From Microcaldota archaeon (GTDB lineage Archaea; Micrarchaeota; Micrarchaeia; Micrarchaeales; Micrarchaeaceae): a stretch of DNA of 64,000 nucleotides. Numbering within the stretch: position 1 is the first letter of the stretch; every line of letters starts with the position of its first letter. Below are positions 3,777 through 17,301 of this stretch, one piece after another. The notes under the pieces were generated by a model. The model saw only the letters and a list, made by a program, of their open reading frames with translations. It was not told where the DNA came from and ran no database searches. The stretch is taken from positions 408,505 to 472,504 of the forward strand of contig JAJZAB010000001.1 of assembly GCA_021799635.1 (NCBI GenBank). Reading direction: 5' to 3'. A program made the position numbers and the translations under genes.

Positions 3777-3855
3777 GTCAACCCCCGTGCCACACTCTGT
3801 TCAATTATACTGCTAACTAGTAATACCATTCCAGTATAGCAACATAACATATTTA

Positions 3856-3878
3856 TATATATCATAATATGATATATA
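3856..3878 (+). promoter_or_regulatory. perfect palindrome over copper-operon promoter (probable operator)
   Basis: TATATATCAT and its exact reverse complement ATGATATATA are separated by AAT. The palindrome merges on its left with the TATA-like stretch ATTTATATAT (3851-3860) and ends ten bases before ATG 3888. The position fits autoregulation by the PadR-type protein encoded next. This is inference from symmetry and position. Confidence 0.6.
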
Positions 3879-3887
3879 GTGAATGCA

Positions 3888-4313
3888 ATGCCCGACATAG
3901 AGATAAAGAACATGGTGAAGTTGTTTACAGTTCTTCTGCTCAGTGAGAAAGGACAGCATGGCTATGAGATAATGAAAGAGGTGGAGAAAAAGACAGGCAA
4001 GAAGGTCAGCCCAGGACAGATATATCCATTCCTCAAGCAACTGAAAAAGTATCGTTATGTTGAAACAAAAGGCAGGGCAGAGAGGGACAGGCAGGCCTAT
4101 TATCTTACTCCGGAAGGCAGGAAGTTCGTGGCACGGCTCTCAGATAAGTTCGGAGACATGTTCGAGATTGCGATAAAGCCAAAGCTTACCGTGTGCGCAC
4201 ATTGTAACTGCGAGATATACAAGGGCGGATACAAGGAAAGGATTAACGGCAGGCTACTGAGCTTCTGCTGTGAGAACTGCGCTAAGGGCTACAGGACGCT
4301 GAATACTCAATAA
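3888..4313 (+). CDS. PadR-family regulator fused to a TRASH/YHS-type metal-binding domain
   Basis: Residues 1-95 form a PadR winged helix (LLSEKGQHGYEIMKEVEK, SPGQIYPFLKQLKKYRYVE). The last 45 residues carry CAHCNCEI and FCCENCAKGYR, the Cys pattern of a TRASH metal-sensing domain. It heads a copper operon ending in a CopA-type ATPase, so a copper-responsive repressor is inferred. The palindrome at 3856-3878 is the likely operator. ATG 3888 was chosen over GTG 3879 because the latter abuts the operator and would leave almost no room for a transcription start. Confidence 0.85.
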   Translation: MPDIEIKNMVKLFTVLLLSEKGQHGYEIMKEVEKKTGKKVSPGQIYPFLKQLKKYRYVETKGRAERDRQAYYLTPEGRKFVARLSDKFGDMFEIAIKPKLTVCAHCNCEIYKGGYKERINGRLLSFCCENCAKGYRTLNTQ

Positions 4314-4326
4314 TATTAGTGAGAAT

Positions 4327-4701
4327 ATGGCTAAGCAAACCTTTTCTGAGATAAGTGTGAAGGCAGCTGCGATAACAGGGGCAGTTATTGGGTTCCTTTG
4401 CTGGCTGTTGTTCATCTCTTTCAGTTTCTCTGGCTATGGGACAGTGGGTTACTTTGGTGGATACGGCATGATGAATGGGTACACAGGCTACATGATGGGT
4501 GGCGTATTCCATAACGCAACATTCGGCTACATGATGAACGGCATATTCTATCCATACAACGGAACCGGATACTATCCCAATGGAGACGCATTCCACAGCT
4601 ATGGCATTGCCTCTGTGATAATCGACATTGTGCTGGGTGCCTTGGCTGGGCTTGCAATTGCGCTGGTATACAATTGGGCGTTAAAGTTAGATAAAAGGTG
4701 A
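4327..4701 (+). CDS. small Met/Tyr/His-rich membrane protein of the copper operon
   Basis: The 124-residue protein has two transmembrane segments (AAAITGAVIGFLCWLLFISF and IIDIVLGALAGLAIALVYNW). They flank an outside loop full of Met, Tyr and Gly (YGMMNGYTGYMMGG, FGYMMNGIFY), a composition typical of copper-binding loops. It resembles the small DUF5676-like membrane proteins found beside copper ATPases. Start ATG 4327 lies 13 bases after the regulator. A role in copper handling at the membrane is inferred. Confidence 0.7.
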   Translation: MAKQTFSEISVKAAAITGAVIGFLCWLLFISFSFSGYGTVGYFGGYGMMNGYTGYMMGGVFHNATFGYMMNGIFYPYNGTGYYPNGDAFHSYGIASVIIDIVLGALAGLAIALVYNWALKLDKR

Positions 4702-4705
4702 AAAA

Positions 4706-4846
4706 ATGAAAGATCCTGTATGTAAAATGGATGTAGAAGAGAACTCCAAGTTCAGGAGCAGCTATAAGGGCAAAACCTATGTCTTTTGCTCCGCTAACTG
4801 CAAGCAGAACTTCGACAAGAAGCCAGAGAGCTATACAAAGAGTTAG
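4706..4846 (+). CDS. YHS-domain protein (46 aa)
   Basis: The protein begins MKDPVCKMDVEE and ends with YVFCSANCKQNFDKKP, so it is a complete stand-alone YHS/TRASH metal-binding domain with the DPVC-x-M and FC-x3-C signatures. A GGTGA ribosome-binding site lies five bases before ATG 4706. It probably acts as a soluble copper-binding or delivery protein for the ATPase, whose N terminus carries a similar domain. Confidence 0.8.
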   Translation: MKDPVCKMDVEENSKFRSSYKGKTYVFCSANCKQNFDKKPESYTKS

Positions 4847-4848
4847 CC

Positions 4849-4992
4849 ATGACAGAGTACAAATGCGCCATATGCGGTTTGCATTACAGGAGCAGAAGAT
4901 TGGCAACAGAGTGCCACAAATGGTGCTCTGCGCATGATAGCTGCAATCTGAGTGTTGCAAGGCACTCTATCGAAGCCAGCAAAAAGAGATGA
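4849..4992 (+). CDS. small zinc-finger-like protein (47 aa)
   Basis: Visible ligands are CAICG near the start, then [12 protein letters not shown]. The seven Cys/His residues in about 30 positions suggest one bound metal ion. ATG 4849 follows the YHS gene stop by two bases and the stop lies four bases before the ATPase start, so translation is probably coupled. The family is not named with confidence; small Cys/His proteins of this kind accompany archaeal heavy-metal operons. Confidence 0.65.
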
Positions 4993-4996
4993 TATT

Positions 4997-7069
4997 ATGG
5001 CAACAGACCCTGTATGCGGCATGTATGTTGATGAAAAAAACTCTACATTGGCTACTGAAAGGGAAGGCAAGAAGTACTATTTCTGCAGTACAAACTGCAA
5101 GCTTCAGTTCGAGAGGCCCGAGAGGGAACTCAGGAACCTGAGAATCGCATTGATGATTTCATGGCCCCTTACTATCATAGTTGCAATACTTACTTACGTT
5201 CTGCACCTTGGCTTTGGCAACTATATAATGCTGGTTCTGGCGAGTATAGTGCAGTTCTATGCTGGGCAGAGGTTCTATGCTGGGATAGCGGATGCAATAA
5301 AGAACAAGTCTGCCAACATGGATACGTTGATTGCGATAGGCACAAGCGCAGCATGGGTCTATAGCACTGCGGTTACGCTTTTGCCATCACTCTTCCCTGC
5401 TGGAGGTATATATTTCGACACCTCGACAATAATAATCTCCTTGATACTCACTGGAACATACATGCAGAGGCTCGCAGAATCAAGGGCGTCTACTGCTGTT
5501 TCTGCACTGATCGCCCTGCAGCCTAAGGTAGCGCACAGAATTGAAGGCGGCAAGGTTGTTGACACCGCCATAGAGCAAATCAAGAAGGGAGACATGCTCC
5601 TTGTGAAGCCTGGAGAGAAGATACCTACTGATTCTGTTGTTGTTGAAGGGGAAAGCTCAGTTGACGAGTCTATGATTACCGGCGAGAGCATGCCCGTTAC
5701 CAAGAGAGCGGGCGACAAGGTGATGGGCGGCACCATCAATGCCACAAGCTCCCTGAAAGTCAGGGCTGCCAAGGTTGGAGAGGATACTGCGCTATCGCAG
5801 ATAATAAAAATTGTTCAGGATGCGGCCTCAAGCAAAGTTCCCATACAGAAACTGGCAGACAGGGTCGCATCGTATTTTGTACCAATAGTCGTGCTTGTCG
5901 GAATCCTGGCTTCGCTGTCCTGGTACTTCATAGGAGGAGTAAGTGCGAATGTATCTATACTAATATTCGTAAGCGTTCTGATAATAGCATGCCCGTGCGC
6001 CCTTGGCATAGCAACGCCTGCAGCGCTGCTTGTCTCCTCTGGCAGAGCTGCGAAGGAAGGGATACTGGTAAAGAGCGGAGAAAGCCTGCAGAAAGCTAGC
6101 AAGATCAACGCATTGGTGTTGGATAAAACAGGTACGCTCACAAAGGGAAAGCCAGAGGTCATTGACATAGTTGCGATTTCTGGATACAAAGAGAAAGAGA
6201 TACTAAGATTTGCAGCCACAGCCGAGATGAACTCTGAGCACGTAATAGGGAAGGCGATAATAGCAAAGGCCGATAAGCTTGGCATAAAGGCGGAGTTTCC
6301 AAAGAAGTTCACCTACAAGCAGGGCAGCGGCATAACGGCACTTGACAAGAATGGCAGGAGGATAGTTATCGGGAACAGGGATCTATTCGATAATAAACAG
6401 ATTGGCAATGTAGAGAAACAACTGCAGAAGCTAGAATCTGAAGGCAAAACCACGCTCATTGTTGGCGTCAGTGGCAAGATTATAGGGCTGATAGCGCTGG
6501 CAGACGTCATCAAGGAAGACAGCAAGAAGGCGATAAACGCTTTCAAAAGCTCAGGCTACGAGATATGGCTGATAACCGGCGACAACGAAAGGGTGGCAAA
6601 TGCCGTAGCAAAGCAGCTAGGCATAAGCAACGTGATCCCACAGGCAAAGCCCAAGGACAAAATGGACAAGATAGCGCAGCTGCAGAAGGGGGGAAAGGTT
6701 GTTGCAATGGTCGGAGACGGCATAAACGACGCACCCGCGCTGACAAAGGCCGATGTAGGCATAGCGATTGGAGCAGGCACGGATGTTGCACTTCAGGCTG
6801 GCAGCATAGTCCTGATAAAGAATAGCATCTACGATGCATTCACCGCTATACAGCTGGGCAAGAGGACAATGGACAAGATAAGGCAGAACCTCTTCTGGGC
6901 ATTCGCATACAACATAGTCCTGATTCCTGTAGCTGCTGGTGTGCTAATACCGTTCTTCACGGTAAGTGTCTACAGCGTTTTACCGCTATTGGCTGCCTTT
7001 GCCATGGCCTTTAGCTCTGTGACCGTAGTTTCTAACTCCCTGTTGCTGGCGAGGTTCAAGGCATCGTAA
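4997..7069 (+). CDS. copA: Cu+-exporting P1B-type ATPase with N-terminal YHS domain
   Basis: The 690-residue protein starts with a YHS domain ([22 protein letters not shown]) in place of the usual HMA domain. Then come eight predicted membrane segments, TGES in the actuator domain (about residue 230), the CPC copper site in ACPCALG (about 331), DKTGTLTKG (about 375) and [10 protein letters not shown] (about 572). In the last helices the YN and MAFSS residues are those of Cu+ transporters. The nucleotide-domain SEHP signature reads SEHV here (codon GTA), which is unusual. ATG 4997 was chosen because the YHS domain begins there; the frame is open further upstream. Confidence 0.93.
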
Positions 7070-7077
7070 CAGCCACG

Positions 7078-7110
7078 CGCGCCCAGGCATCCACGCCCAT
7101 ATAATTTAAA
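7078..7110 (+). repeat. direct repeat, left copy, upstream of the 7132 gene
   Basis: Begins CGCGCCCAGGCATCCACGCC and ends in TAATTTAAA. A close copy lies at 7851-7882, just after the 7132-7827 gene. The AT-rich end may serve as the TATA box for the gene. About 28 of 33 positions match. Confidence 0.5.
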
Positions 7111-7131
7111 CATTCAGTGAGTAACAGTATC

Positions 7132-7827
7132 ATGGCAAAGAGAAGGAAGCCGCTACCACGCAAGTGGATTCTAGCAGTCATAGTCATCGCAGCCCTACTC
7201 ATCGCTGCGGCTGCCATATCTAATATCTATGGAATGCCCTACATAAAGCCCTCAAGCTTCAATTCAAGCAACGTATCCAACTCTATGAAGCTCATAATCA
7301 CGATACCTAACCAGACAGTGGCATACGGAAGCAACGTCTCAATAGAGGTCAGCCTCTTCAACACCGCATCGCAGGCATACAACATATCAATACATGGCTA
7401 CTATACGCAGCCGAACACGATAATGCTTGGCTCAACGTCTCCATGCGGGAACTGGGAGATGCCGCTTGGAATAGCCCTATTCAAAGGCCACTATAGTCTG
7501 AGCGAAATAAGCAACGGCACAGGAGAGCTGCAGCTTTCAGAGCCTGGTGTATATTACGGTTGTCCCGCAGAACTGATCGCCACATCATACTACTTCTGGC
7601 CTCACAGCGATAATGCAACTGTCTACATCCTCACAAGCGCAACGAACACATCCAAGTACGCAACTCTGCCAATACAAACCACTTTCGTAGTGGGCGGATA
7701 CTGGAGCAATTCTACCCTTTTCGGGAATCAATATGCCTTCAACAAATTCCCTGTAGGCAACTACACCGTAGTCGCTGGTAACGGCTATTGGAAGCGATAC
7801 GTAGTAGGATACTTTAGGGTCGAATAA
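7132..7827 (+). CDS. membrane-anchored extracellular protein of unknown function
   Basis: The protein of about 231 residues has a basic N terminus (MAKRRKPLPRKW), one membrane helix (LAVIVIAALLIAAAAISNIYG) and an extracellular beta-rich region with many NxS/T sequons and one Cys pair (PCGNWE, YGCPAE). GTG 7117 is in frame, but ATG 7132 sits correctly downstream of the TATA-like TAATTTAAA. It lies alone, flanked by direct repeats, inside the tRNA-Asn island. Confidence 0.6.
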   Translation: MAKRRKPLPRKWILAVIVIAALLIAAAAISNIYGMPYIKPSSFNSSNVSNSMKLIITIPNQTVAYGSNVSIEVSLFNTASQAYNISIHGYYTQPNTIMLGSTSPCGNWEMPLGIALFKGHYSLSEISNGTGELQLSEPGVYYGCPAELIATSYYFWPHSDNATVYILTSATNTSKYATLPIQTTFVVGGYWSNSTLFGNQYAFNKFPVGNYTVVAGNGYWKRYVVGYFRVE

Positions 7828-7850
7828 CTACGATAGCCTATGCGCTAGCA

Positions 7851-7882
7851 CACGCCCAGGCACCCACGCCCCTTAATTTAAA
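7851..7882 (+). repeat. direct repeat, right copy, after the 7132 gene
   Basis: CACGCCCAGGCACCCACGCC followed by CCTTAATTTAAA repeats the sequence at 7078-7110. The next 60 bases are nearly pure A/T with no gene behind them, so this looks like a duplicated promoter region or a trace of insertion. Confidence 0.5.
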
Positions 7883-7988
7883 TAATATAAATGAATTTAA
7901 ACAATTTATATATATAAATTCATTTAAATGAATGTATAAGTGGTATACACATTTATATGCGAAAAAAGGGTGGAAATCGACGGTATAA

Positions 7989-8038
7989 AAATCCTCCTTG
8001 TCGGAGATGCGCCTGACGCGCATCTTGTGCTTCGGGCG
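7989..8038 (+). repeat. 50-bp hairpin repeat, copy E1
   Basis: The copy begins AAATCCTCCTTGTCGGAG, has the stem GATGCGC/GCGCATC around loop CTGAC, and ends TTGTGCTTCGGGCG. It is 50 bases long like the four other copies (E2-E5). Read on the minus strand it is followed by ATTTTTATA, a TATA-like box, but no credible minus-strand gene follows. Confidence 0.85.
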
Positions 8039-8318
8039 CTTAAAAATTACGACGACAAACACAGGTTCGAAGCTATTCGGGCACTTCGCTTACGGGGGAC
8101 GGCGCTCCAATGAGCTCAAGCCAACAACTTGGCAGTCCAAGGAACCTGAGTCGCTTTTGAGTGGAGGCAAAAGCGACAGCCGAGCAGGAAGAAAACTACA
8201 GTCAAGTGACTTGAATTAAGAAAATTGAGTGTAGTGGATTAAAAGATAAGTTATAAGTATACAAACAATAAAAGACAAGTTATAAATATTAAAACAATAA
8301 TAATGAGTTTGTGATACT
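8039..8318. other. gene-free stretch with a strong inverted repeat (8150-8177)
   Basis: No convincing protein is encoded. GTCGCTTTTG (8150-8159) and CAAAAGCGAC (8168-8177) form a perfect 10-bp stem with an 8-base loop. CTTGG-CAGT-CCAAG and TCAAGT-G-ACTTGA are further short palindromes close by. The stretch could be a structured RNA or decayed DNA behind E1. An AT-rich promoter-like region (8221-8310) precedes the 8319 gene. Confidence 0.4.
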
Positions 8319-8705
8319 ATGGTAGAAAAATTATATCCATCTAAAATTGAAAGGCCGAATACACCTGTAGAGAAAAGTGTTCTTATACAATGGGTCGCTG
8401 GTATGAAGGTAGACGAAATGGCAGCGCAAGATTTTGCAGCCCGTTTGGAAAAAGATGGATTCAAACAGGAGGTGGGGGCCTTTCTTCAGCAAGGCTGGAG
8501 GATGTGGGAACAACTCAGGTTGCCTAGAATAATAATTAGCGATGGATATCATATTGTAACTTATGAATGCGATGATGCTACAAAGCTATTGAGAAGTTTT
8601 GTAGAAGCGCAGGAAGATACAGTAAAAACAGTAAACAACCATTTAGGAATCGTTGTTCCCGCGCCATTTACAGCACTATCATGGGCAGATTTGGAAAGAA
8701 AATAG
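8319..8705 (+). CDS. protein of unknown function (128 aa)
   Basis: A soluble, mixed alpha/beta-looking protein (VLIQWVAGMKVDEMAAQDFA, QQGWRMWEQLRLPR). No domain is recognised. ATG 8319 follows an AT-rich promoter-like region and a short GTGAT. Codon use is more AT-rich than in the housekeeping genes of this window, which fits its place in an acquired island. Confidence 0.55.
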   Translation: MVEKLYPSKIERPNTPVEKSVLIQWVAGMKVDEMAAQDFAARLEKDGFKQEVGAFLQQGWRMWEQLRLPRIIISDGYHIVTYECDDATKLLRSFVEAQEDTVKTVNNHLGIVVPAPFTALSWADLERK

Positions 8706-8829
8706 CAACCTTGTTCTATTGTTTCAAGATCGTTCACTTACGTGTTATTGGTATTTCAACTAGTTCGACTTTACCGTAACCGCACCTGCATGCTATATAA
8801 ATGCTAATTTTCAAAAGAGCATACAGATA

Positions 8830-9186
8830 TCAGGTTCGAATGATTGAATTAGCTTGGTGAAAAAGTGAGAACACAAAACCCTGTTTTGTATTCAGAGAGC
8901 GAGCAGCTGTCGGATAAGTCCTGTAAAATGTCATATGAATTTTCCTTTTAGTGTATTTTATCCTAAAGCAGTCGTTCAGTAGGTTGAAGAAAACGTCTCT
9001 CTTGTTGGCCACGCGTTGGACCCCCCATACCATCTTTCGCCCTCCAAATACGTTTGTGCCATTTGGTTTTGGCAGTGGCATATGAATGCCCTTCATCGAG
9101 GCCCTTCCATCCTGGATTGGAATCAAGCTTTTGGCATCATTTTCCGAAAATATGTGCAGTTTGTGGAGTTCGGCATTCAGCCTCAC
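8830..9186 (-). CDS. possible protein of unknown function (118 aa), or decayed sequence
   Basis: The frame lies 46 bases downstream of the HAD gene on the same strand and begins with GTG. The product is basic with no recognised domain. The surrounding 8706-9232 region holds nothing else I can identify beyond a TATA-like GCTATATAAA near 8793. It may be non-coding. Confidence 0.25.
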   Translation of the reverse strand: MRLNAELHKLHIFSENDAKSLIPIQDGRASMKGIHMPLPKPNGTNVFGGRKMVWGVQRVANKRDVFFNLLNDCFRIKYTKRKIHMTFYRTYPTAARSLNTKQGFVFSLFHQANSIIRT

Positions 9187-9232
9187 CAGCTTCCCCTCCG
9201 CCTCTCAGCACCTTTATTGTGCATTTGGTCAA

Positions 9233-9922
9233 CTACAGTATATCTGATCCAACAATCTTGGGCAGTTCGTTGAGCGTTTCTATCTTAAAGTCATAAGTAC
9301 TGCTGTCGTATTCCCTTGCCTTTCTAACAACTAAGCAGAATTTTATCCCAAGAGTCCTGCATTTTCCATCCTTCTCGATGCTGTCTCCGACCATGAGGCA
9401 TTCTTCAGCACGCAAGCCTGTTCTGCTCAGCGCGAGCGAAAACACACTGCCACTTTCCTTATCGGCATAGAGTTCTGCGGTCATAAAGACATGGCTGAAC
9501 ATATCAAGCACGCCAAATTCGTGCAGGGATTCTCTCACTTCTGAGAAGGTATCATCGCTTATCAATGACAACTTGTACTCTCCAGCCAACTCTTTCAGAA
9601 GTTTTTGCGCGTTATCATACAGCTTTACATTCTTTCTTCTGTAATCTTCAACCATCTGGTAAAGGTTAGTTGCCTGCGCAGCATTCAATCCGAGATTCAG
9701 CTCTTTTGGAATGTTCTTTACGAGAAACTCCAACCCTGTTTTGTAGCCCATGCGGTTCTTTGCATCATATTCTCCTGCCAGTTTTGTAAGAGCCGCATAG
9801 AACTCTTTGTCTGCGAAGCCGCCGAATGTCCTTAGTCTGGCCATTATCTGGGCATCTACAGCATCCTGCCAGCTGTTGTCGACAAGTGTGCCGTTCCCGT
9901 CAAAAAATATCCCCCTGAACAT
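9233..9922 (-). CDS. HAD-superfamily hydrolase-like protein, altered motif I
   Basis: Motif I reads FFDGNGTLVD at residues 6-15, motif II is LISDDT, the motif III Lys is in YADKESGS, and motif IV is LMVGDSIEKDG. A helical cap lies between motifs I and II. The usual DxDGT has become DGNGT: the second Asp, the general acid/base of phosphatases, is Asn. Reduced or altered phosphatase activity is inferred. The length of 229 residues is normal for the phosphoglycolate phosphatase-like branch. It lies in the tRNA-Asn island, 82 bases after the VOC gene. Confidence 0.8.
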   Translation of the reverse strand: MFRGIFFDGNGTLVDNSWQDAVDAQIMARLRTFGGFADKEFYAALTKLAGEYDAKNRMGYKTGLEFLVKNIPKELNLGLNAAQATNLYQMVEDYRRKNVKLYDNAQKLLKELAGEYKLSLISDDTFSEVRESLHEFGVLDMFSHVFMTAELYADKESGSVFSLALSRTGLRAEECLMVGDSIEKDGKCRTLGIKFCLVVRKAREYDSSTYDFKIETLNELPKIVGSDIL

Positions 9923-10004
9923 TGTTATCCACGCATTAGTTCTGATATTGAATTGTAATATGTTCTGGAAAACAGCACTCTGAGCTCAGCTAGCGCTTCT
10001 TTCT

Positions 10005-10448
10005 TCACTTTTGTGCAGAGTCAACCTTGTTATTATTTTTGGCGGCCACGAATATCCAGTGTCTGTGGAATTTATCATACATCTGCCCGTACATGCCAAA
10101 CGGCATTTGATGCAGTTCTTGAAACCTATCCTTTTCTGCTCCAACTGCAAGCCTGTCAAATACTGTCTTCACTTCATCATAGCTACCTGTAACAAATACG
10201 GCGTACATCTCTCCCAGTATAGGTTCATATTGCGGGGCTGCCATCCAGTCGGTGGCAGATATATCGATCGCCCCATTTTTTATGTGTGCATTGATGATCC
10301 TGTTATGCTTTTCTTGAGGGAACATGCTTTTCATAGGTGTGTCCGCAAGTTTTGTCAACGTCAGTTCTCCTCCAAAGCATTTGTGGTAAAAGGTCATCGC
10401 TTCGCCGCAGTCACCGTCAAATAAGAGAAATGGGGTGGTTTGTAGCAT
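10005..10448 (-). CDS. VOC-superfamily (PhnB/glyoxalase-like) protein
   Basis: The 147-residue protein shows the PhnB-type VOC pattern: TPFLLFDGDCGEAMTFYHKC at the start, GGELTLTKL, then IINAHIKNGAIDISATDW and a C-terminal MYGQMYDKFHRHWIF. Proteins of this family are often found with AHSA1/SRPBCC proteins, and one is encoded at 13.5 kb in the same island. The substrate is unknown. On the minus strand the gene is preceded by repeat E2 and a TTTAAATAA box. Confidence 0.85.
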   Translation of the reverse strand: MLQTTPFLLFDGDCGEAMTFYHKCFGGELTLTKLADTPMKSMFPQEKHNRIINAHIKNGAIDISATDWMAAPQYEPILGEMYAVFVTGSYDEVKTVFDRLAVGAEKDRFQELHQMPFGMYGQMYDKFHRHWIFVAAKNNNKVDSAQK

Positions 10449-10501
10449 ATTTTCACTTTTTTAGCTATATACTTTTTAGCTATATAAGATTCAAATTATT
10501 T

Positions 10502-10551
10502 AAATCCTCCTTGTCGGAGATGTGCCTGACGCACATCTTGTGCTTCGGGCG
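10502..10551 (+). repeat. 50-bp hairpin repeat, copy E2
   Basis: Begins AAATCCTCCTTGTCGGAG, with stem GATGTGC/GCACATC around loop CTGAC and end TTGTGCTTCGGGCG. Compared with E1, one stem pair changes from C-G to T-A on both arms, so pairing is kept. On the minus strand it lies 53 bases upstream of the VOC gene and next to GGAGGATTTAAATAA, which looks like a BRE/TATA box. Confidence 0.85.
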
Positions 10552-10640
10552 AAAATGGCTTATTTTGCTTAGTTTGTCGTCTAGAAGCTATGCTTAATTT
10601 ATACGCCATGAGAAGGCGTTAATATGACAGGTACGGTGCC

Positions 10641-11204
10641 TTACTTACTACTTAATTTCATTTTAACAAGCTTCCATTTCTGTTTCTTATTGCTTCTAGT
10701 ACCAGCATAAATGCAAGTTAACCTGATCTTAAATTTTATCTTATAGTTCTTGTAATTCTTTATTATCTTATAAAATTTTTCTTTATCTAAATCCGTTCTA
10801 GCAAGACTTATATGTGGTTTGAATGTTCTATACCTCCAATAATTATAATCTTCAATGCCTTTGTTAAAGATCCTATATAATCTAGTAAGCTCTTTACTAG
10901 GTTCAACACCGATGTATACAACATAATTTATTTTATTATCGCTTTTGTGTGCCTTTCTAAAATAGCCTATTCCATTAATTTGTAAATAAAATGGCTTAAC
11001 AAATTCGAGCCTTTTGTTATAATATTTGATTATCTCCTTAACCTCTTTATCTTCTAACTTTTCTTGAGGATAAAGAAATGAGATATGGGGTCCTTTTTGA
11101 TCTTTAAGGGCTTTGTACACTTTATATTTTCTAGCTACCTCCTTAGTTAAAGTGACCAACCTCTTATCTGGAATTAGAATGAATACTTCAAATTTGGTCT
11201 TCAT
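10641..11204 (-). CDS. 2H phosphoesterase-superfamily protein
   Basis: The two HxS/T motifs of 2H phosphoesterases are present: GPHISFLYP (about residue 39) and KPHISLAR (about 133), in a protein of 187 residues. Members hydrolyse cyclic phosphates in RNA or nucleotides; the substrate here is unknown. Composition is very rich in Lys, Ile and Tyr with AT-rich codons, clearly unlike the neighbouring core genes, and suggests horizontal transfer. It starts at ATG 11204. Confidence 0.75.
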   Translation of the reverse strand: MKTKFEVFILIPDKRLVTLTKEVARKYKVYKALKDQKGPHISFLYPQEKLEDKEVKEIIKYYNKRLEFVKPFYLQINGIGYFRKAHKSDNKINYVVYIGVEPSKELTRLYRIFNKGIEDYNYWRYRTFKPHISLARTDLDKEKFYKIIKNYKNYKIKFKIRLTCIYAGTRSNKKQKWKLVKMKLSSK

Positions 11205-11255
11205 AGGCCAATATCGAAACTCATTAATTAATTACTTCACCTAATCTATTATGCA

Positions 11256-11609
11256 ATAAATTATCCGAATTTAGAAGAAATTACAGAAGTAAACAAAAAG
11301 ATAGGATCAAACGGTGCATTCATCAATAAAAATAATCTTGAATTTACATTAGAAAAGACAAAGAACGCCAAAACTTTGTCTAAAGCAGCGTCAGTGCTAC
11401 TTTACGGAATTGTAACTGGTCATCCATTTGTGGATGGAAACAAGAGAACTGCTCTTATAGCTACTGAACTATTCTTGAAAATTAACGGCAAGGAATTGGA
11501 ATACAGCAAGGACGACGAGCACCTTATGGAAAGGGTTTTATATGACATCGCACAGAATAATATCAAGGAAGAATCCTTAGAAAAAATCATTTCTGAGTTG
11601 ATTAAATGA
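11256..11609 (+). CDS. Fic/Doc-family toxin-like protein without a canonical start codon
   Basis: The Fic signature HPFVDGNKRTA is intact. Upstream residues (NLEEITEVNKKIGSNGAF, NNLEFTLEKTKNAKTLSKAA) look like a normal Doc N terminus. The frame is open back to 11232, but contains no ATG, GTG or TTG before TTG 11376, which would cut off half the domain. ATA 11256 is the most plausible start, or the gene has lost its start. Fic/Doc proteins AMP-ylate or phosphorylate targets such as EF-Tu. No Phd-like antitoxin is seen upstream. Confidence 0.6.
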   Translation: MNYPNLEEITEVNKKIGSNGAFINKNNLEFTLEKTKNAKTLSKAASVLLYGIVTGHPFVDGNKRTALIATELFLKINGKELEYSKDDEHLMERVLYDIAQNNIKEESLEKIISELIK

Positions 11610-11719
11610 CAGAACATGAAGCAATGATTGATTCATTAATATTAAAGTGGAAGAGACTCATACAATGGCTAGCCGATGAGAGGCTTGCCAAGGAACGAAG
11701 AGACATTAAATCTAGATAA
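11606..11719 (+). CDS. possible small protein coupled to the Fic gene (37 aa)
   Basis: ATG 11606 overlaps the Fic stop in an ATGA arrangement, which suggests translational coupling. The product is helical and charged (MTEHEAMIDSLILKWKRLIQ). It could be an antitoxin-like partner, but there is no family match to support that. Confidence 0.35.
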   Translation: MTEHEAMIDSLILKWKRLIQWLADERLAKERRDIKSR

Positions 11720-11776
11720 ACCTGGTGAAAACTATGCCAAAAACAAATGGGCGTAGGACTTCTCATCCTGTGGCCT

Positions 11777-11798
11777 GCTTAGGGCGATGTGCTTCAAG
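11777..11798 (+). repeat. att-like direct repeat, internal copy
   Basis: GCTTAGGGCG plus ATGTGCTTCAAG matches the tRNA-Asn 3'-end repeat (3755-3776) at 19 of 22 positions. It may mark a junction between successive insertions within the island. Confidence 0.45.
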
Positions 11799-11943
11799 TG
11801 CGGCTCCTATTACCTTTCCGCGTCCTTCCCCTAAAAACGGGTCTCCAGAATAAGGTTACTAACCCTAAAGCTATCATGATAACGCCAACGGTAGCAAATG
11901 TACTAGCAAATGGCACTATATGCCCAATACCTAAGCTTTCCAT
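11794..11943 (-). CDS. small membrane protein (49 aa)
   Basis: ATG 11943 opens a 49-codon frame with one membrane helix (STFATVGVIMIALGLVTLFW) and a basic C-terminal tail (FRGRTRKGNRSR). Repeat E3 and a TTTAAATAA box lie about 28 bases upstream, a spacing typical of a leaderless archaeal promoter. The function is unknown. Its last codons overlap the internal att-like repeat. Confidence 0.5.
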   Translation of the reverse strand: MESLGIGHIVPFASTFATVGVIMIALGLVTLFWRPVFRGRTRKGNRSRT

Positions 11944-11970
11944 GTTATTACCCTCTTATTTAACTTATTT

Positions 11971-12020
11971 AAAGGTTCTTTGTCTGAGATGTGCCCGGCG
12001 CACATCTTGTGCATCGGGCG
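11971..12020 (+). repeat. 50-bp hairpin repeat, copy E3
   Basis: The 50 bases begin AAAGGTTCTTTGTCTGAG, have stem GATGTGC/GCACATC around loop CCGGC, and end TTGTGCATCGGGCG. On the minus strand it is followed by TTTAAATAA and then the 49-aa membrane protein. Confidence 0.8.
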
Positions 12021-12081
12021 CCTAATACTGACCAAATCTGTAAAGGGCCAAAGATATTTATATATTATCATCTCTATATAA

Positions 12082-12097
12082 CAATATAGTTATATTG
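12082..12097 (+). promoter_or_regulatory. palindrome upstream of the AbiE pair (probable operator)
   Basis: CAATATA-GT-TATATTG is a perfect inverted repeat. It lies between the TATA-like ATTTATATAT (near 12055-12064) and the antitoxin coding region. AbiEi proteins are known to repress their own operon by binding inverted repeats, so an operator is inferred. Confidence 0.55.
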
Positions 12098-12107
12098 GAG
12101 TGATATT

Positions 12108-12680
12108 ATAAAGGAACTACAGTTATACCAGATTAGGGATCGTGCAGTCGCTTCGGGCAGGGCGGTGTACTCTGTCCAACAACTCTCGAACCTAATAGGT
12201 AAATCTAAGGCTGTATCTACTGTATACTCATCTAGGCTGGTCAAGAAGGGGCTTGCAATCAGGGTCATGAAGGGCACAATCTCGTTTGTTGATGATCTTT
12301 TTGTGATTGCAACACAACTAGTCGAGCCGTCTTACATTTCGCTCAACTCCGCCCTTCTTTTTCACGAAGTACTACAGCAGATCCCTAAAGCAATAGAATG
12401 CGCTACAACCAAGAATTCACTAAAATACAATAATGTAAAGGCCATCTATCACAAGATTCCAAAGAGCTTGTTCTACGGCTACAAGAGGTACGGCAAGGCA
12501 AACAGCTATATATTCGTTGCCGAGCCGGAGAAGGCAATCATTGACGGAATCTATCTGAATTTATACGGAAAGAAGGATCTGGATGAGTTGGCACCCAAAG
12601 TAAGCAACACAAGGCTCCTGGAGCTGGCGGACAGGTTCGATGGCAGAGGTAGCAAAAAGATAAGGTCAATGATAAAATGA
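12108..12680 (+). CDS. abiEi: AbiEi-like antitoxin (type IV toxin-antitoxin)
   Basis: The N-terminal winged helix (SVQQLSNLIGKSKAVSTVYS, RLVKKGLAIRV) and the C-terminal region (YISLNSALLFHE, AEPEKAIIDGIYLNLYG) match the AbiEi antitoxin and regulator family. The only canonical start, GTG 12165, removes about 19 residues that read as normal protein (KELQLYQIRDRAVASGRAV). ATA 12108 or ATT 12105 is therefore preferred. The toxin gene follows with an ATGA overlap. Confidence 0.8.
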   Translation: MKELQLYQIRDRAVASGRAVYSVQQLSNLIGKSKAVSTVYSSRLVKKGLAIRVMKGTISFVDDLFVIATQLVEPSYISLNSALLFHEVLQQIPKAIECATTKNSLKYNNVKAIYHKIPKSLFYGYKRYGKANSYIFVAEPEKAIIDGIYLNLYGKKDLDELAPKVSNTRLLELADRFDGRGSKKIRSMIK

Positions 12681-13426
12681 TAAGCAAAAATGAACTGCTT
12701 GAGATAGCAAAACTGATGGGAATGAACCCATGGCAGCAGGAAAAGCATTACGTACAATATCTTGCCCTCAATGGCATTGCAGAAGAGCCCCTTGTTTTCA
12801 AGGGTGGCACCTATCTCTGGTTTGCCCATGGGCTTGGCAGGTTTTCCGAAGACCTTGATTTTACGGCTTCTGAGCCGCTCCCGAGTAACATAGCAGAAAA
12901 AGTATCTACCAATCTAGGGCTTTTTGGAGTTGAGAACCAAATCAAGCATATAACAAATAATGAAACAACGCTTTCATTCAGGATTAGTGCGAAGGGGCCG
13001 CTCAGCACAGCAAAAATAGATGAATGCATAGTCTACATAGAAATAAGCAAAAGAGAGCAGATACTAAAGAAGGTGTTGCCCGTGAAGCTTGATTATCCGG
13101 CTTATTCATCTCCTATAAAGACCATCTCAGGAATGGCCCTTGAGGAAGTTGGCGCAGAAAAGGTTCGAGCCATATTTACCAGGCAAAAGGCAAGAGACAT
13201 ATTTGATCTGCATTATTTGATATCAAAAAAGCGGATAAAATTTGATGAGAATCTAGTAAACTCAAAGCTGCAATATTATAAGATGAAGTTTTCTGCAAGC
13301 CTGTTTCTAAAGGCCATTGCTGATAAGCAGGACTACTATGTCAGGGAACTGAAAGGGCTTGTGTTCGGAGAATTACCGCAGTTCAGGGAAATCAAGAAAA
13401 GCCTATCGGATTGGATTAGCAGATAG
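12677..13426 (+). CDS. abiEii: AbiEii-like nucleotidyltransferase toxin
   Basis: The nucleotidyltransferase motifs are present: FKGGTYLW followed by RFSEDLDF (GG and S-x-D-x-D), then the conserved Lys region VRAIFTRQKARDIFDLHYL. The family transfers nucleotides to RNA targets such as tRNA and halts growth unless neutralised by AbiEi. The length of 249 residues is normal. ATG 12677 overlaps the antitoxin stop, so translation is coupled. Confidence 0.88.
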   Translation: MISKNELLEIAKLMGMNPWQQEKHYVQYLALNGIAEEPLVFKGGTYLWFAHGLGRFSEDLDFTASEPLPSNIAEKVSTNLGLFGVENQIKHITNNETTLSFRISAKGPLSTAKIDECIVYIEISKREQILKKVLPVKLDYPAYSSPIKTISGMALEEVGAEKVRAIFTRQKARDIFDLHYLISKKRIKFDENLVNSKLQYYKMKFSASLFLKAIADKQDYYVRELKGLVFGELPQFREIKKSLSDWISR

Positions 13427-13452
13427 CTCCCCCGAAAAGGCCAAAATTATAG

Positions 13453-13502
13453 CTCTGTACCTTGTCCGAGATATGCCTGACGTACATCTTATTCTTCGGG
13501 CG
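13453..13502 (+). repeat. 50-bp hairpin repeat, copy E4 (most diverged)
   Basis: The stem region reads GATATGC-CTGAC-GTACATC, which pairs less well than the other copies, and the end is TTATTCTTCGGGCG. It lies between the convergent 3' ends of the AbiEii and SRPBCC genes, so it is not in a promoter position. Together with E5 it brackets the SRPBCC gene. Confidence 0.75.
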
Positions 13503-13526
13503 ATGGCATCCAAGTTATACTTCCTC

Positions 13527-13985
13527 TCATTTTTCCTTCTTTTCTTTAGGATTTGGCTGGCCATCGCCTTTCATGATAAAGTTGCGCAAACTAGTTTTTA
13601 TGTAAAAACCCCATGCGTCCGAACAGGCATCGTAGCATTCGATTTTTGGAGCAAGGCCAACGTGCGTGAAACGCAGTTCTGTCTTGCTGCCTTTTTTGGT
13701 TATATCAAATACAATGTCCGTGCCGTTCCATTCTTCTTTATCTTTTATAAAGCTAAGATAACTGTCCACAACGTGCCATACTACTCTTTTGCCTGGGATA
13801 AGTTTTGTTATCTTTTGTTTTGAACGGTGCATGTCCTTGTAGTGGTACTCCCACACAGCACCAAGCCTATCTGTCCTACCCGTGATCTCTCCAGACCACC
13901 ACTTTCGAACATTGTTGATTGCCTTAAAAACCTCTTCTGGGCTTTTATCTACCAAAATCGTAATAGTATAATCCTGACCAGCCAT
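13527..13985 (-). CDS. SRPBCC/AHSA1-domain protein
   Basis: From ATG 13985 the 152-residue protein reads TITILVDKSPEEVFKAINNV, then WWSGEITG, VWHVVDSYLSF, WNGTDIVFDITKKG, and ends with a helix (ACSDAWGFYIKTSLRNFIM). This is the AHSA1 branch of the SRPBCC fold, which binds hydrophobic ligands in a deep cavity. The frame is open further upstream, but that part is repeat E5 and not protein. A TTTAAATAA box about 30 bases before the ATG fits a leaderless transcript. Confidence 0.85.
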   Translation of the reverse strand: MAGQDYTITILVDKSPEEVFKAINNVRKWWSGEITGRTDRLGAVWEYHYKDMHRSKQKITKLIPGKRVVWHVVDSYLSFIKDKEEWNGTDIVFDITKKGSKTELRFTHVGLAPKIECYDACSDAWGFYIKTSLRNFIMKGDGQPNPKEKKEK

Positions 13986-14019
13986 ATAGTCCAATTTAAC
14001 CGTGAATTTGAAGTTATTT

Positions 14020-14069
14020 AAATCTTTCTTGTCTGAGATGCGCCTTCGGCGCATCTTGTGCATCGGGCG
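14020..14069 (+). repeat. 50-bp hairpin repeat, copy E5
   Basis: Begins AAATCTTTCTTGTCTGAG, with stem GATGCGC/GCGCATC around loop CTTCG, and ends TTGTGCATCGGGCG. On the minus strand it lies 34 bases upstream of the SRPBCC start and abuts GATTTAAATAA. Its right end runs into the att-like repeat at 14060. Confidence 0.85.
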
Positions 14070-14081
14070 CTGCGCTTCAGG
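14060..14081 (+). repeat. att-like direct repeat, right end of the island
   Basis: GCATCGGGCG plus CTGCGCTTCAGG matches the tRNA-Asn 3'-end repeat at 3755-3776 in 20 of 22 positions, in the same orientation. It contains the stop codon of the large surface protein that begins the next region. Confidence 0.6.
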
Positions 14082-17000
14082 TACATTCGAAACCGCCGTA
14101 GTTGCATGATACAGATTTTGGGCATATTGGCGGGCAGGTAAATCCGGCTTCACTCACTAGGTAGCAATAATTGCATTCATAATAGCCTGATAGCACAGTT
14201 GTTGTGGTCGATGAGGAGCTTGCAGATGTAGTTGAGGATGTTGAGGTTGATGAGCTAGTTGATGTTGTTGCGGTTGTAATACCATAAATGTACATATCAA
14301 CGTATGTCACTTTTCCGGCGCTGACGTTCAGGTAGTTTGTGCTGTTGGTTATGTTGTCATAGGTGCCATCAACCTCGTAACTGCCTGGTGTTATTATGTA
14401 TCCTGTATTGTATTCGCCGTTGGCTCCGGTGTACCATCCGCTGTATATTTGTACACCTGGCGAGAATGCGCGTACTGCCGCCGCTGCCACAGGTGTCCCG
14501 TTGAAAAATACGGTTATGTTTAGGGCGCCATATCCAGAGGTGCTTGTCACTGTTGTAGTAGATGTATTTATCTGAGGTATCGTTGTTGTGGTCGTGCTGC
14601 CATTTGTAGACACGTATATCAGCAATGGCACAGTTGTATTATACGTTGCATTGGCAGTATGCATAACTGACGTTATCCTGGCTACATACAGGCCCTTTCG
14701 CACGCTGCGACCTAGAGACATATGCAGGGATGTCATGTCACTTAATGATTCTGAATTGGCAGGAGCTGGGTCCGGTACAAATATCGCAGTAGTATTAGCC
14801 GGCCTGTCATTAATATATGTCAAAGACATGTTTGCAGGATACGGCATCATAGGCATACAAGGCAATGTCTTGTTAAATCCAATCCCGAATGTCCTGCACA
14901 GCTTCACAGTAATGTTGTTCACCAACGTGCCGCCCTGAGCTGCATACACCGTGCCGTTTGCTAGGCTTATATTCAGTTCAGTCTTTGGATAGCTTCCGGA
15001 ATACAGGACCACAGGCATACTATATGTCCATCCGTACGTAGATCCATAAAGCGGGGGGAAAGGATACCCTGCCGATGTAACCAGCGGGGTGAGGTTCAGG
15101 TAGTATAAACCAGGTCTGCTCCCGGTGTGCCATACAAAGCTTGTAGTTGCAGTAGTCGGACTTGTTAAACCTAGTGCATAGCCTCTTACGCTACCGCAAG
15201 CAGTTTGGTCTCTGAAGCCATTGAAGAATGTCACGCATAGAGTCCCGTTGCTTGGTGATGGATAGCCGCCGCTTACTGCGCCTGAGCCTGCATCCGCACC
15301 AACAATAACATTACCTGCAAGCATGTTATGTGCTGTGTAAAGCAGAGTCAAGTTTATCTGCATTGTGCTACCCACTGGTGCCACTCCGTACGGGTATGCG
15401 CTAGGCCAAGAAACATTGTAAATCAGCGGGCTCCATGTCTGAACCATGACATCCATAGGGCCATTGACGCATACTGGATTAGGTCCCAGCACAAACACAT
15501 ACCCTGGTTTCTGCGCATTAACCTGATAGCATCCGCTGGCCAGAACAGGGGTGACAACCTGGCCGTTTACTCCAGTTGTGTTAGAGTAAACCTCCTTACC
15601 ATTTGGTCCAATCAATGATATCGTGACTCCGGGTATCGAGCAGTTCTCAATTGGCAGGCATCCTTCAATGGATGGTACAAAGCCAGCATATATGGTTATG
15701 CTGCCATTCTGCTGCGTCCCTGCGGTTGTGTATATTGCCTGTGCCTGCGTAGGGCCTATAAGCTGGAACGTCACATTTGAAGTGTTGTATCTGTTATAGT
15801 ACTGGTTTCCTGCCAGCTCCGAGTATACACTCCAATAGCTGAAGTAGTATGTCTTCGCAGATGTTCTCACAATCTTTGGCGTGGAGAGCGATACTGGCTC
15901 GAGCACAGGTGAATAATTAAGCTGCGGCGCAGGCGAGTATCCGTGTGGAGACGTAACAGATGCGCTGCGAGGTATCGTTGAGGATACATTCAGAAGTGCA
16001 TATATGGTGTAGTTGAACTTCATTCCACATATTTCATTGCCGCACGAGTATGTGTACGAAGAGTTTGTTGAGTTGTACACGGTGAAATTGCCCACGGGCG
16101 TTTCTCCTATCGGCGCCGAGAACATCTGTACGCCGGCATTGATGAGAATGGTCTTCTCTGATTCGTTCATAACCCCTGACATGCTTGACTGGAATCCTCC
16201 GGTGGATTCGCCATATGAGCTAGGCCCATAGACCCACCAGGTGATCGGGAGGCTGTCCGACACAGGGCCAAATGTGCCATCCATAGAAGGAGGAACAGGG
16301 CTTCCAGAAGAAGTGACTCCAAAGTAGACGCTTGGTATCTCGCTGTAGGGAAGCTGTGGGTTCAGCCCTGAAGCCGCCCATCCCTCGGCATCTATGCAAT
16401 CGTCTATGCCAAAGAAGTTGCAGTCTCCGGTATCATAGCTCCACTGCGGGCGCAAAGGAGGCGCGCTCCCCACCTGGAGCATTGGCATTGCTACATAGTC
16501 GCCGACGCAGATCGATGAGCCGCCTTCAGGAGGTGGAGGGGGCGGCACGCATACAGGAGCGAACATGGGCAGTCCTGTGCCTGAGCTGTTGCCTTCCACT
16601 CCAGGAACCGCCGATGTTATTATAGGCGCATAGTATATCAGGTACGCGAAGTTTTCATAATAGCTGTATGGATATTGAAGGGAGCTATCATGCGGGCTGA
16701 GCTCATAAGTGCCATCAAGGACCGCGTCCATTATTGGGTCGCCAGACGCCTTGCCGCTCTCATTCACGAATCTGGCGCTAAACTGCTTTGGGGCGTAGAC
16801 AGGGCTTTTAACAAAAAAACTCGACAGAGCTGAAGAAAGCGAGCTTGCGTTGTATCCTATTAACAGAAACACTGTCTGACCGCGCTCCCATACATTATCC
16901 TTGCTTATCATTGCGCCTTTTGTGTTATTGAGAGCATTGTCAAGCTCTGTGATATTAATGGCCTTCAGTGCAAGTTGTGCGTATGCATCATTACTGCTGT

Positions 17001-17301
17001 TTACTACAATTACTATGAAGGTGGAATTCTGGGCGTTTGTGAAATTAGCCGCGTCAGCATACCTGAAATCATATCTCTCACTTGCCAGTGACGCAAACTT
17101 GCCGTTGGCTGCCAAAACATTATATGGCGAGATCAAAGCGAATGAGGCATTGCCCAGATGGGCAAAGGGATCCAACGTGTTGAGATTTTCTGCCTGCGTA
17201 CCAAGCGATCTCATTGTTAGCAGGAGTACAGCAATTATGGATACTACTACCACAATAATTAGGATAATGACATAGTTTCGACTCTTCTTGGCTATGGTCA
17301 C
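14077..17301 (-). CDS. very large membrane-anchored surface protein with Thr/Ser-rich stalks and Cys-rich C terminus
   Basis: This is a 1074-residue protein from GTG 17301. One N-terminal membrane helix (YVIILIIVVVVSIIAVLLLT) is followed by an extracellular region with dozens of N-glycosylation sequons. Two carboxypeptidase-regulatory-like or SpaA-like beta domains are visible (GVTISLIGPNGKEVYSNTTG; ALNITVFFNGTPVAAAAVRA). Ser/Thr tracts (TTTTTIPQINTSTTTV; TSTSSSTSTSS) act as stalks. The last 35 residues carry eight Cys (CNYCYL, CPPICPKSVSCNYGGFEC). It is probably an S-layer-associated or adhesion protein; no catalytic motif is seen. Confidence 0.75.
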   Translation of the reverse strand: MTIAKKSRNYVIILIIVVVVSIIAVLLLTMRSLGTQAENLNTLDPFAHLGNASFALISPYNVLAANGKFASLASERYDFRYADAANFTNAQNSTFIVIVVNSSNDAYAQLALKAINITELDNALNNTKGAMISKDNVWERGQTVFLLIGYNASSLSSALSSFFVKSPVYAPKQFSARFVNESGKASGDPIMDAVLDGTYELSPHDSSLQYPYSYYENFAYLIYYAPIITSAVPGVEGNSSGTGLPMFAPVCVPPPPPPEGGSSICVGDYVAMPMLQVGSAPPLRPQWSYDTGDCNFFGIDDCIDAEGWAASGLNPQLPYSEIPSVYFGVTSSGSPVPPSMDGTFGPVSDSLPITWWVYGPSSYGESTGGFQSSMSGVMNESEKTILINAGVQMFSAPIGETPVGNFTVYNSTNSSYTYSCGNEICGMKFNYTIYALLNVSSTIPRSASVTSPHGYSPAPQLNYSPVLEPVSLSTPKIVRTSAKTYYFSYWSVYSELAGNQYYNRYNTSNVTFQLIGPTQAQAIYTTAGTQQNGSITIYAGFVPSIEGCLPIENCSIPGVTISLIGPNGKEVYSNTTGVNGQVVTPVLASGCYQVNAQKPGYVFVLGPNPVCVNGPMDVMVQTWSPLIYNVSWPSAYPYGVAPVGSTMQINLTLLYTAHNMLAGNVIVGADAGSGAVSGGYPSPSNGTLCVTFFNGFRDQTACGSVRGYALGLTSPTTATTSFVWHTGSRPGLYYLNLTPLVTSAGYPFPPLYGSTYGWTYSMPVVLYSGSYPKTELNISLANGTVYAAQGGTLVNNITVKLCRTFGIGFNKTLPCMPMMPYPANMSLTYINDRPANTTAIFVPDPAPANSESLSDMTSLHMSLGRSVRKGLYVARITSVMHTANATYNTTVPLLIYVSTNGSTTTTTIPQINTSTTTVTSTSGYGALNITVFFNGTPVAAAAVRAFSPGVQIYSGWYTGANGEYNTGYIITPGSYEVDGTYDNITNSTNYLNVSAGKVTYVDMYIYGITTATTSTSSSTSTSSTTSASSSSTTTTVLSGYYECNYCYLVSEAGFTCPPICPKSVSCNYGGFECT

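What the first reader, a model, noticed from the sequence alone, without database searches (positions are those of the whole stretch)
7989..14069. Five copies of an exactly 50-bp hairpin repeat, all in one orientation, in an accessory island
Copies lie at 7989, 10502, 11971, 13453 and 14020, each 50 bases from the AAAT-like start to the GGGCG end. The central stem changes on both sides (GATGCGC/GCGCATC, GATGTGC/GCACATC), so pairing is conserved while sequence drifts. Three copies (E2, E3, E5) sit directly upstream of minus-strand genes and are followed on that strand by TTTAAATAA boxes, in E3 and E5 at a spacing fit for leaderless promoters. E4 and E5 bracket one gene like a cassette. Two readings: a recombination site of a gene-cassette array (attC-like), or a shared operator upstream of the core promoter that spreads with cargo genes. 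The right end (GCTTCGGGCG) is identical to the 3' end of tRNA-Asn in three copies, which favours a mobile origin. I know of no named element of this form.
Basis: partly seen in the sequence, partly recalled or inferred. Interest (0 to 1): 0.85.

Follow-up and report, generated by a model that had tools for sequence, protein, structure and literature searches.

The report
tRNA-anchored gene-cassette array in Micrarchaeota
In tiny acid-mine archaea (Micrarchaeota), single genes and small operons are stacked one after another behind a tRNA-Asn gene, each ending in the same 50-bp hairpin-shaped recombination site, and the same units turn up nearly unchanged at other array positions in distant relatives, so this looks like an archaeal counterpart of the bacterial integron that uses a tRNA gene as its docking point.

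Summary
The five 50-bp repeats are real and far beyond chance. They belong to a large family: about 130 copies in 61 of 164 genomes of one Micrarchaeota order, none seen in the rest of the phylum. In all 43 loci that hold both features, all 79 repeats lie downstream of tRNA-Asn(GTT) in the tRNA's orientation. Each repeat ends in that tRNA's 3' acceptor strand (WTCGGGCG). Most sites are followed by an arm, GATGCGCTTCAGG, complementary to the repeat's left arm. The intervals behave as discrete gene cassettes: whole units recur with edges at the sites, at different array positions, in different genera and families (up to 98% DNA identity while neighbouring core genes are 57-65% alike). Two filled/empty-site pairs show insertion at the tRNA-Asn 3' end. 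A tyrosine recombinase (about 410 aa, C-terminal zinc ribbon) starts 67-68 nt after such a site in nine of ten loci and is the likely enzyme, though absent from the window's own, 88% complete genome. Repeats near the tRNA are better preserved than distal ones. It works like an integron but fails its tested hallmarks (attC cores, IntI insert). Best filed as a new, archaeal, hairpin-ended variant of tRNA-targeted cassette islands. Recombination itself is inferred, not observed.

The parts
3693..3764 (+). tRNA-Asn(GTT), the anchor (proposed primary attachment site); its last 8 bases TTCGGGCG are the tail shared with the repeats
   Evidence: ARAGORN and Rfam; upstream of arrays in 43 of 43 loci that hold both
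3764..3776 (+). right arm GATGCGCTTCAGG of the proposed site, left end of the first cassette
   Evidence: sequence; arm follows 33 of 53 tRNA sites and 71 of 123 repeats, background 0.3%
3765..8038 (+). cassette 1 (4274 bp): PadR/TRASH regulator 3879-4313, small membrane protein 4327-4701, copper-type P-type ATPase 4952-7069, 236-aa protein 7117-7827, ending in repeat E1
   Evidence: first 1.5 kb 97.7% identical to the cassette after repeat 3 in G108, other family; Pfam
7989..8038 (+). repeat E1
8039..10551 (+). cassette 2 (2513 bp): 128-aa ORF 8319-8705 (+), HAD hydrolase 9233-9922 (-), glyoxalase/3-dmu-like protein 10005-10448 (-), ending in E2; may be more than one unit with a lost repeat, since its last gene is a cassette of its own in L083 and L084
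10502..10551 (+). repeat E2
10552..12020 (+). cassette 3 (1469 bp): 2'-5' RNA ligase-like protein 10641-11204 (-), Fic/Doc-like coding stretch about 11240-11607 (+, by eye), small minus-strand ORF beside E3
   Evidence: left end shared with cassettes of L036 and L044
11971..12020 (+). repeat E3
12021..13502 (+). cassette 4 (1482 bp): AbiEi 12165-12680 and AbiEii 12677-13426 toxin-antitoxin pair (+)
   Evidence: Pfam and PADLOC
13453..13502 (+). repeat E4
13503..14069 (+). cassette 5 (567 bp): AHSA1/SRPBCC protein 13527-14006 (-), ending in E5
   Evidence: same unit in five other cassettes in other genomes at 563-574 bp or 556 bp, 93-94% identical in L047 and L084
14020..14069 (+). repeat E5, followed by the right arm CTGCGCTTCAGG
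14070..17301 (-). probable sixth cassette whose end repeat is lost: 1074-aa protein of a recurrent cassette family
   Evidence: same gene family is a whole cassette in L034, L042, L081, L088, L099; site-anchored homology window|H5 to L088|H1, 86%; no repeat found to its right

Best explanation
Window 3765 to about 17300 is a gene-cassette array built by site-specific recombination at the 3' end of tRNA-Asn. Each cassette is a short DNA unit (median 1.5 kb, usually 1-3 genes, at least some with their own promoters). Its right end is the 50-bp repeat, whose last 8 bases are the tRNA-Asn 3' acceptor strand plus discriminator base. Its left end is usually the arm (G)ATGCGCTTCAGG. Joined in a circle, the two ends would form one site, CCTGACGCRCATC-TTGTGCWTCGGGC-GATGCGCTTCAGG, inverted 13-bp arms around a spacer that holds the tRNA sequence. 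Recombination of that site with tRNA-Asn inserts the cassette beside the tRNA, leaves a complete tRNA, and pushes older cassettes outward; repetition builds the array. The likely enzyme is the tyrosine recombinase carried by integrase-bearing members of the same element family; plain cassettes are non-autonomous passengers. Shown: array anatomy, anchoring, whole-unit exchange, filled/empty sites, integrase position. Inferred: circular intermediate, action of the enzyme on these sites, route between cells.
For: All 79 repeats in 43 loci downstream of and co-oriented with tRNA-Asn; no mixed orientation in 70 loci. 127 site-anchored pairs of homologous cassettes, many with tRNA-Asn at one and a repeat at the other left edge; up to 98% identical while core genes beside the tRNA are 57-65% alike. 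Filled/empty: G052 versus G051, 11,175-bp insert with integrase; G038 versus G115, 2,957-bp insert. Integrase start 67-68 nt after a site in 9 of 10 loci, two of them after a repeat. Inverted arms 12/13 complementary in consensus. Repeats nearer the tRNA score higher in 61 of 75 pairs, p 5e-5. Rare tRNA 3' variants with G matched by the nearest repeat in 3 of 3 genomes.
Against: The own genome has no tyrosine recombinase hit, though it is 88% complete. About 40% of sites, including those after E1-E3, lack the consensus right arm. Seven loci with longer upstream sequence have repeats without tRNA-Asn. Common TT/AT tail variants do not follow the host tRNA. No circular form was found. All evidence is from metagenome-assembled genomes; misjoined contigs at repeats are possible in single cases but not across the whole set.
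Confidence: 0.85

Rival explanations
1. A true integron (CALIN type): the repeats are attC sites recombined as folded single strands by an IntI integrase at an attI site.
For: Array of short units, one orientation, a palindromic site at the end of each unit, a tyrosine recombinase at one end in some genomes.
Against: RYYYAAC/GTTRRRY core pair found in 0 of 124 repeats; recombinase lacks the IntI-specific insert (36 residues where IntI4 has 73) and is nearer to Xer; platform is a tRNA gene; genes lie on both strands about equally.
Confidence: 0.04
2. Ordinary tandem accretion of independent integrative elements (viruses, plasmids, islands) at a tRNA hot spot; the small units are their decayed remains rather than mobile cassettes in their own right.
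For: Integrase-bearing units of 5-13 kb sit at the tRNA and carry restriction-modification cargo; broken integrases and N-terminal remnants occur.
Against: Small units recur intact, with exact lengths (567, 1457, 1513, 1804 bp) and 93-98% identity in different genera and families and at different positions: they move as units without an integrase of their own.
Confidence: 0.1
3. A shared operator or RNA element upstream of minus-strand promoters that spreads with cargo genes.
For: TATA-like boxes beside the repeat accompany minus-strand starts (27/42 versus 12/72).
Against: Most repeats have no adjacent minus-strand start; orientation follows the tRNA and not the genes; no Rfam match; little covariation; tail is tRNA-derived.
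Confidence: 0.02
4. Transposition with target duplication at the tRNA 3' end (casposon-like Cas1 or a similar enzyme).
For: Unit ends have inverted-repeat character and a copy of the tRNA 3' end follows each unit.
Against: Cas1 is absent from the own genome and from most array-bearing relatives (9 of 60 genomes have it), while a tyrosine recombinase sits at the insertion end. HUH/Y1 transposases were not searched for directly.
Confidence: 0.02

Closest known systems
tRNA-targeted gene cassettes of additive flexible genomic islands (Ca. Actinomarinales, PMC7771536; Methylophilaceae fGI-2, PMC10872708)
   Same: Small gene cassettes inserted at tRNA genes, each followed by a direct repeat of the tRNA end; variable islands; transfer between genera reported.
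   Different: Those repeats are described as tRNA fragments only (20 bp of tRNA-Lys in one case). Here each unit ends in a dedicated 50-bp palindromic site of which only 8 bases (11 with the preceding TGC) match the tRNA, plus a right arm and a resident recombinase; archaea instead of bacteria.
Integrons and CALINs, including archaeal integrons (PMC9668308)
   Same: Cassette arrays in one orientation with a palindromic site per cassette, insertion at one end, arrays without integrase are common.
   Different: No attC cores, recombinase without the IntI insert, tRNA gene as platform, cassette genes on both strands.
Tandem tRNA genomic islands (Islander, PMC4383910)
   Same: Tyrosine recombinase, attB in a tRNA gene, the displaced fragment marks each end.
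   Different: [quoted passage not shown] here most units have none and arrays reach 6-8 sites.
Tycheposons (Prochlorococcus; described second-hand in PMC10872708)
   Same: tRNA-bordered cargo elements with a tyrosine recombinase.
   Different: [quoted passage not shown] here units are mostly 0.3-4 kb with a common palindromic end.
Archaeal Xer recombinases (XerA 5hxy, XerC-like 4a8e) and integrases of archaeal pleomorphic viruses
   Same: Nearest solved relatives of the candidate enzyme and nearest annotated viral ones (28-31% identity).
   Different: About 410 aa with an added C-terminal zinc ribbon and encoded right beside tRNA-Asn.

Membership tests
Integron / CALIN | attC sites with RYYYAAC and GTTRRRY cores | tested here: not met
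   core pair in 0 of 124 repeats on either strand
Integron / CALIN | IntI-type tyrosine recombinase with its extra insert | tested here: not met
   query gap of 36 residues faces 73 in IntI4; closer to XerA and XerC-like proteins
Integron / CALIN | array of gene cassettes, each ending in one co-oriented palindromic site | tested here: met
Integron / CALIN | cassettes recombined as a folded single strand | not testable with these tools
   needs an assay with single-stranded substrates
tRNA-targeted integrative elements / additive cassette islands | insertion at a tRNA 3' end with the tRNA kept intact and a copy of its end at the far edge | tested here: met
   filled/empty pairs G052/G051 and G038/G115; tails WTCGGGCG
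tRNA-targeted integrative elements / additive cassette islands | tyrosine recombinase encoded by the element | tested here: inconclusive
   present at the site in some members; absent from most cassettes and from the own genome
Islander-type tandem array | each island has its own integrase | tested here: not met
   most units have none
Casposon | Cas1 encoded by or with the element | tested here: not met
   no Cas1 in own genome; 9 of 60 relatives, mostly not array-bearing
Structured RNA family | match to a curated RNA family, compensatory changes in stems | tested here: not met
   no Rfam match to the repeats; one covarying pair only

The most novel reading that the evidence does not exclude
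An integron-like gene-capture system that arose independently in DPANN archaea: an essential tRNA-Asn gene is the capture platform, a mobile zinc-ribbon tyrosine recombinase is the capturing enzyme, and a pool of cassettes (defence, toxin-antitoxin, copper resistance, small enzymes) is shared across families of acid-mine Micrarchaeota, each capture swapping the tRNA's own 3' end.
Probability: 0.55. Interest if true: 0.88.

Novelty: new variant of a known kind. Interest (0 to 1): 0.78.

Why it matters
How streamlined DPANN archaea with genomes of about 1 Mb gain genes is poorly known. This gives a concrete, testable route: a hot spot with a defined site, a candidate enzyme and a readable insertion history, spreading type I restriction-modification, AbiE and other toxin-antitoxin genes, candidate defence ATPases and copper ATPases among genera and families. 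It is a second example of integron logic (one platform, one enzyme family, many passive cassettes) on a different platform, and may show what that logic needs at minimum. The site is also a search handle for archaeal cassettes that tools looking for attC/IntI, or for one integrase per island, would probably miss (inference).

Tried and rejected
Regulatory operator: orientation follows the tRNA, not the genes. Structured RNA: no Rfam match, little covariation in either stem. A tRNA-like minihelix (acceptor plus T-stem mimic) was considered because GCCTGA..TCGGGC and GCACA..TGTGC can pair; no covariation above shuffles. attC: cores absent. Casposon: Cas1 mostly absent. A second hairpin at the left end of cassettes: not supported (mean z -0.3). 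Free forms: no repeat in IMG/VR; the only integrase relative there is remote (22%); phage records give 28-31% relatives at best. A clean chromosomal empty site for the window's own array was not found: same-genus genomes without detectable repeats have other genes behind tRNA-Asn. The AlphaFold model of the integrase was of modest quality (pLDDT 66) and served only as a weak check.
Full report
Check of the observation. The five 50-bp copies are at 7989, 10502, 11971, 13453 and 14020, all on the + strand. A 35-nt core pattern finds four with at most 3 mismatches against none in 100 shuffles, and an unfiltered covariance scan of the region finds the five and nothing else credible. tRNA-Asn 3693-3764 ends TGCTTCGGGCG, as E1 and E2 do. 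The own genome (748,639 b, 4 contigs, 88% complete) has no further credible copy.

A family, and where it lives. A covariance model of the five copies finds about 130 copies in 61 of 164 genomes of the order. In a phylum-wide sample every hit was in the same two families of that order (59 of 301 genomes). An exact-pattern scan of GTDB genomes hits 29 stretches, nearly all titled Candidatus Micrarchaeota; two titled Marsarchaeota and one titled bacterium coincide in contig coordinates with genomes of the same order in the other collection (inference).

Anchoring. I fetched 80 loci. Seventy loci, window included, hold 124 repeats; none mixes orientations. In all 43 loci with tRNA-Asn on the stretch, all 79 repeats lie downstream of it in its orientation. 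The 5' side of the tRNA is a conserved gene block; the 3' side is highly variable. Most loci without the tRNA are cut by contig ends; seven have longer upstream sequence without it. In two of these a unit starts at a TGCTTCGGGCG site outside a recognised tRNA gene, possible secondary sites.

Cassettes. The 97 intervals between successive sites have a median of 1482 bp and usually 1-3 genes, equally on both strands (113 versus 115 ORFs). The same units recur whole: a 1457-bp AAA_14/DUF4143 ATPase cassette, an 1804-bp hemerythrin/DUF488 cassette, the 567-bp AHSA1 cassette of E4-E5, a 536-bp one, and one of about 3.4 kb for a roughly 1050-aa protein. In 127 pairs the homology starts within a few bases of the site, often with tRNA-Asn on one side and a repeat on the other. 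The window's first cassette is 97.7% identical over its first 1.45 kb to the one after repeat 3 of G108, a genome of the other family, while core genes beside tRNA-Asn are 57-60% alike. The 1804-bp cassette is 97.7% alike in genomes with 65% core identity, the 1513-bp one 97.1% versus 60-63%. These are recent transfers of single units.

Filled and empty sites. In G051 one cassette follows tRNA-Asn directly. In its congener G052 the same cassette is preceded by 11,175 bp that begin at the tRNA, carry an intact recombinase and a type I restriction-modification system, and end in the repeat. G038 carries a 2,957-bp insert relative to its congener G115.

The recombinase. The proteins right behind tRNA-Asn in G109, G052, G027 and G050 are tyrosine recombinases of one clade (79-95% identical to the G109 protein) with the catalytic residues R, K, HxxR, W and Y and a C-terminal zinc ribbon; G097 also encodes one beside its tRNA-Asn. 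The G027 and G050 copies are cut by contig ends, and G039 holds a broken one. In ten loci with the clade's N-terminus the start codon lies 67 or 68 nt after a site in nine, seven behind tRNA-Asn and two behind a repeat, so integrase-bearing elements are cassettes with the same left edge. The own genome has no hit. Nearest solved structures are archaeal Xer proteins; the IntI-specific insert is missing.

Anatomy of the site. Across 124 copies the repeat is conserved mainly in sequence. A right arm ATGCGCTTCAGG follows 33 of 53 tRNA sites and 71 of 123 repeats (background 0.3%). The repeat's left arm CCTGACGCGCATC and the complement of the right arm CCTGAAGCGCATC match at 12 of 13 positions. They flank a 13-nt spacer TTGTGCWTCGGGC that ends in the tRNA acceptor strand. 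This is the geometry of a recombinase site (inference). About 40% of sites lack this arm, including those after E1, E2 and E3.

Direction and crossover. Repeats near the tRNA score higher than distal ones in 61 of 75 within-array pairs (permutation p 5e-5; first above last in 15 of 16 arrays). The model was built from the window, but the trend spans 16 arrays. It fits insertion at the tRNA and decay outward. In the window the outermost unit (the 1074-aa gene after E5) has lost its end repeat. In three genomes tRNA-Asn has a rare G as second base of the 3' strand (AG, AG, TG); in all three the nearest repeat has it too, and the only other repeats with it lie in one of these genomes or on a contig without the tRNA. 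A crossover 5' of these bases would do this. The common TT/AT variants show no such link, so this stays suggestive.

Cargo. Copper-type ATPase with a PadR/TRASH regulator, AbiEi/AbiEii, PemK/MazF, Fic, type I restriction-modification, AHSA1, hemerythrin, UDG, RibD_C, DUF488, and an AAA_14 ATPase matching a PADLOC candidate family. TATA-like boxes next to the repeat go with a minus-strand gene starting there (27/42 versus 12/72), so at least some cassettes carry their own promoters.

Comparison with the known. Text searches found no paper on Micrarchaeota cassettes; the library lacks most subscription papers. Integrons were reported in nine archaeal phyla (PMC9668308; the stem 'Micrarchae' does not occur in its main text). 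tRNA-targeted cassettes with tRNA-fragment repeats are described in bacteria (PMC7771536, PMC10872708), and tandem tRNA islands in Islander (PMC4383910). The present system shares the insertion principle with these and the array logic with integrons, and differs in its dedicated 50-bp end, the resident recombinase and the host group. Hence 'new variant of a known kind'.

What is shown and what is not. Shown by sequence: family, anchoring, unit exchange, insertion points, placement of the recombinase. Inferred: circles, the enzyme acting on the sites, transfer route. Not explained: extra variation of a few bases beside the site, and how arrays grow in genomes without the recombinase.

Noticed in passing
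first 18 nt after sites in L034-L123 and the window; repeat positions 26-29 and 43-44: Between cassettes with at least 90% identical bodies, bases 4-6 and 13-18 after the site are only 68-77% alike, and the repeat's loop (26-29) and tail (43-44) 69-74%, against about 94% in the body; bases 7-9 (CTT) are invariant. Either site segments are exchanged during recombination or they mutate fast.
   Followed up: partly
right arm after sites, e.g. window 3765-3785: The right-arm consensus CAGGTTCTACCCC matches the tRNA-Asn T-arm CAGGTTCAATCCC at 11 of 13 positions, so the left end of cassettes may itself be tRNA-derived.
   Followed up: no
L040 10427-10800 (G047): A 374-bp mini-cassette joins the first about 157 bp of the 1804-bp cassette to the last about 190 bp of the integrase-type element: a hybrid with little or no cargo.
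   Followed up: no
about 190 bp before E1 (window 7849-8038) and L037, L043, L046, L079, L089, L094, L121: A shared right end (...CGAAAATCGACGGTATAAAAATCCTCC plus repeat) marks integrase-bearing elements and some relatives; the window's first cassette has it without an integrase, so it may descend from an autonomous element.
   Followed up: partly
L064 (G007), L078 (G127): Other tyrosine recombinases, only 29-36% identical to the main clade, also start right behind tRNA-Asn, so this tRNA is a target for more than one integrase lineage.
   Followed up: partly
L094 12764-13798 (+): Protein in the G109 integrase-bearing element with an N-terminal winged helix and a weak C-terminal PCNA-like match.
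   Followed up: no
window 48671-48776 (+): tRNA found by Rfam (106 nt) but not by ARAGORN in its default mode: possibly an intron-containing tRNA.
   Followed up: no
window 11240-11607 (+): Fic/Doc-like coding stretch in cassette 3 that begins without a clear start codon, resembling the Fic gene of L113; possibly truncated.
   Followed up: no
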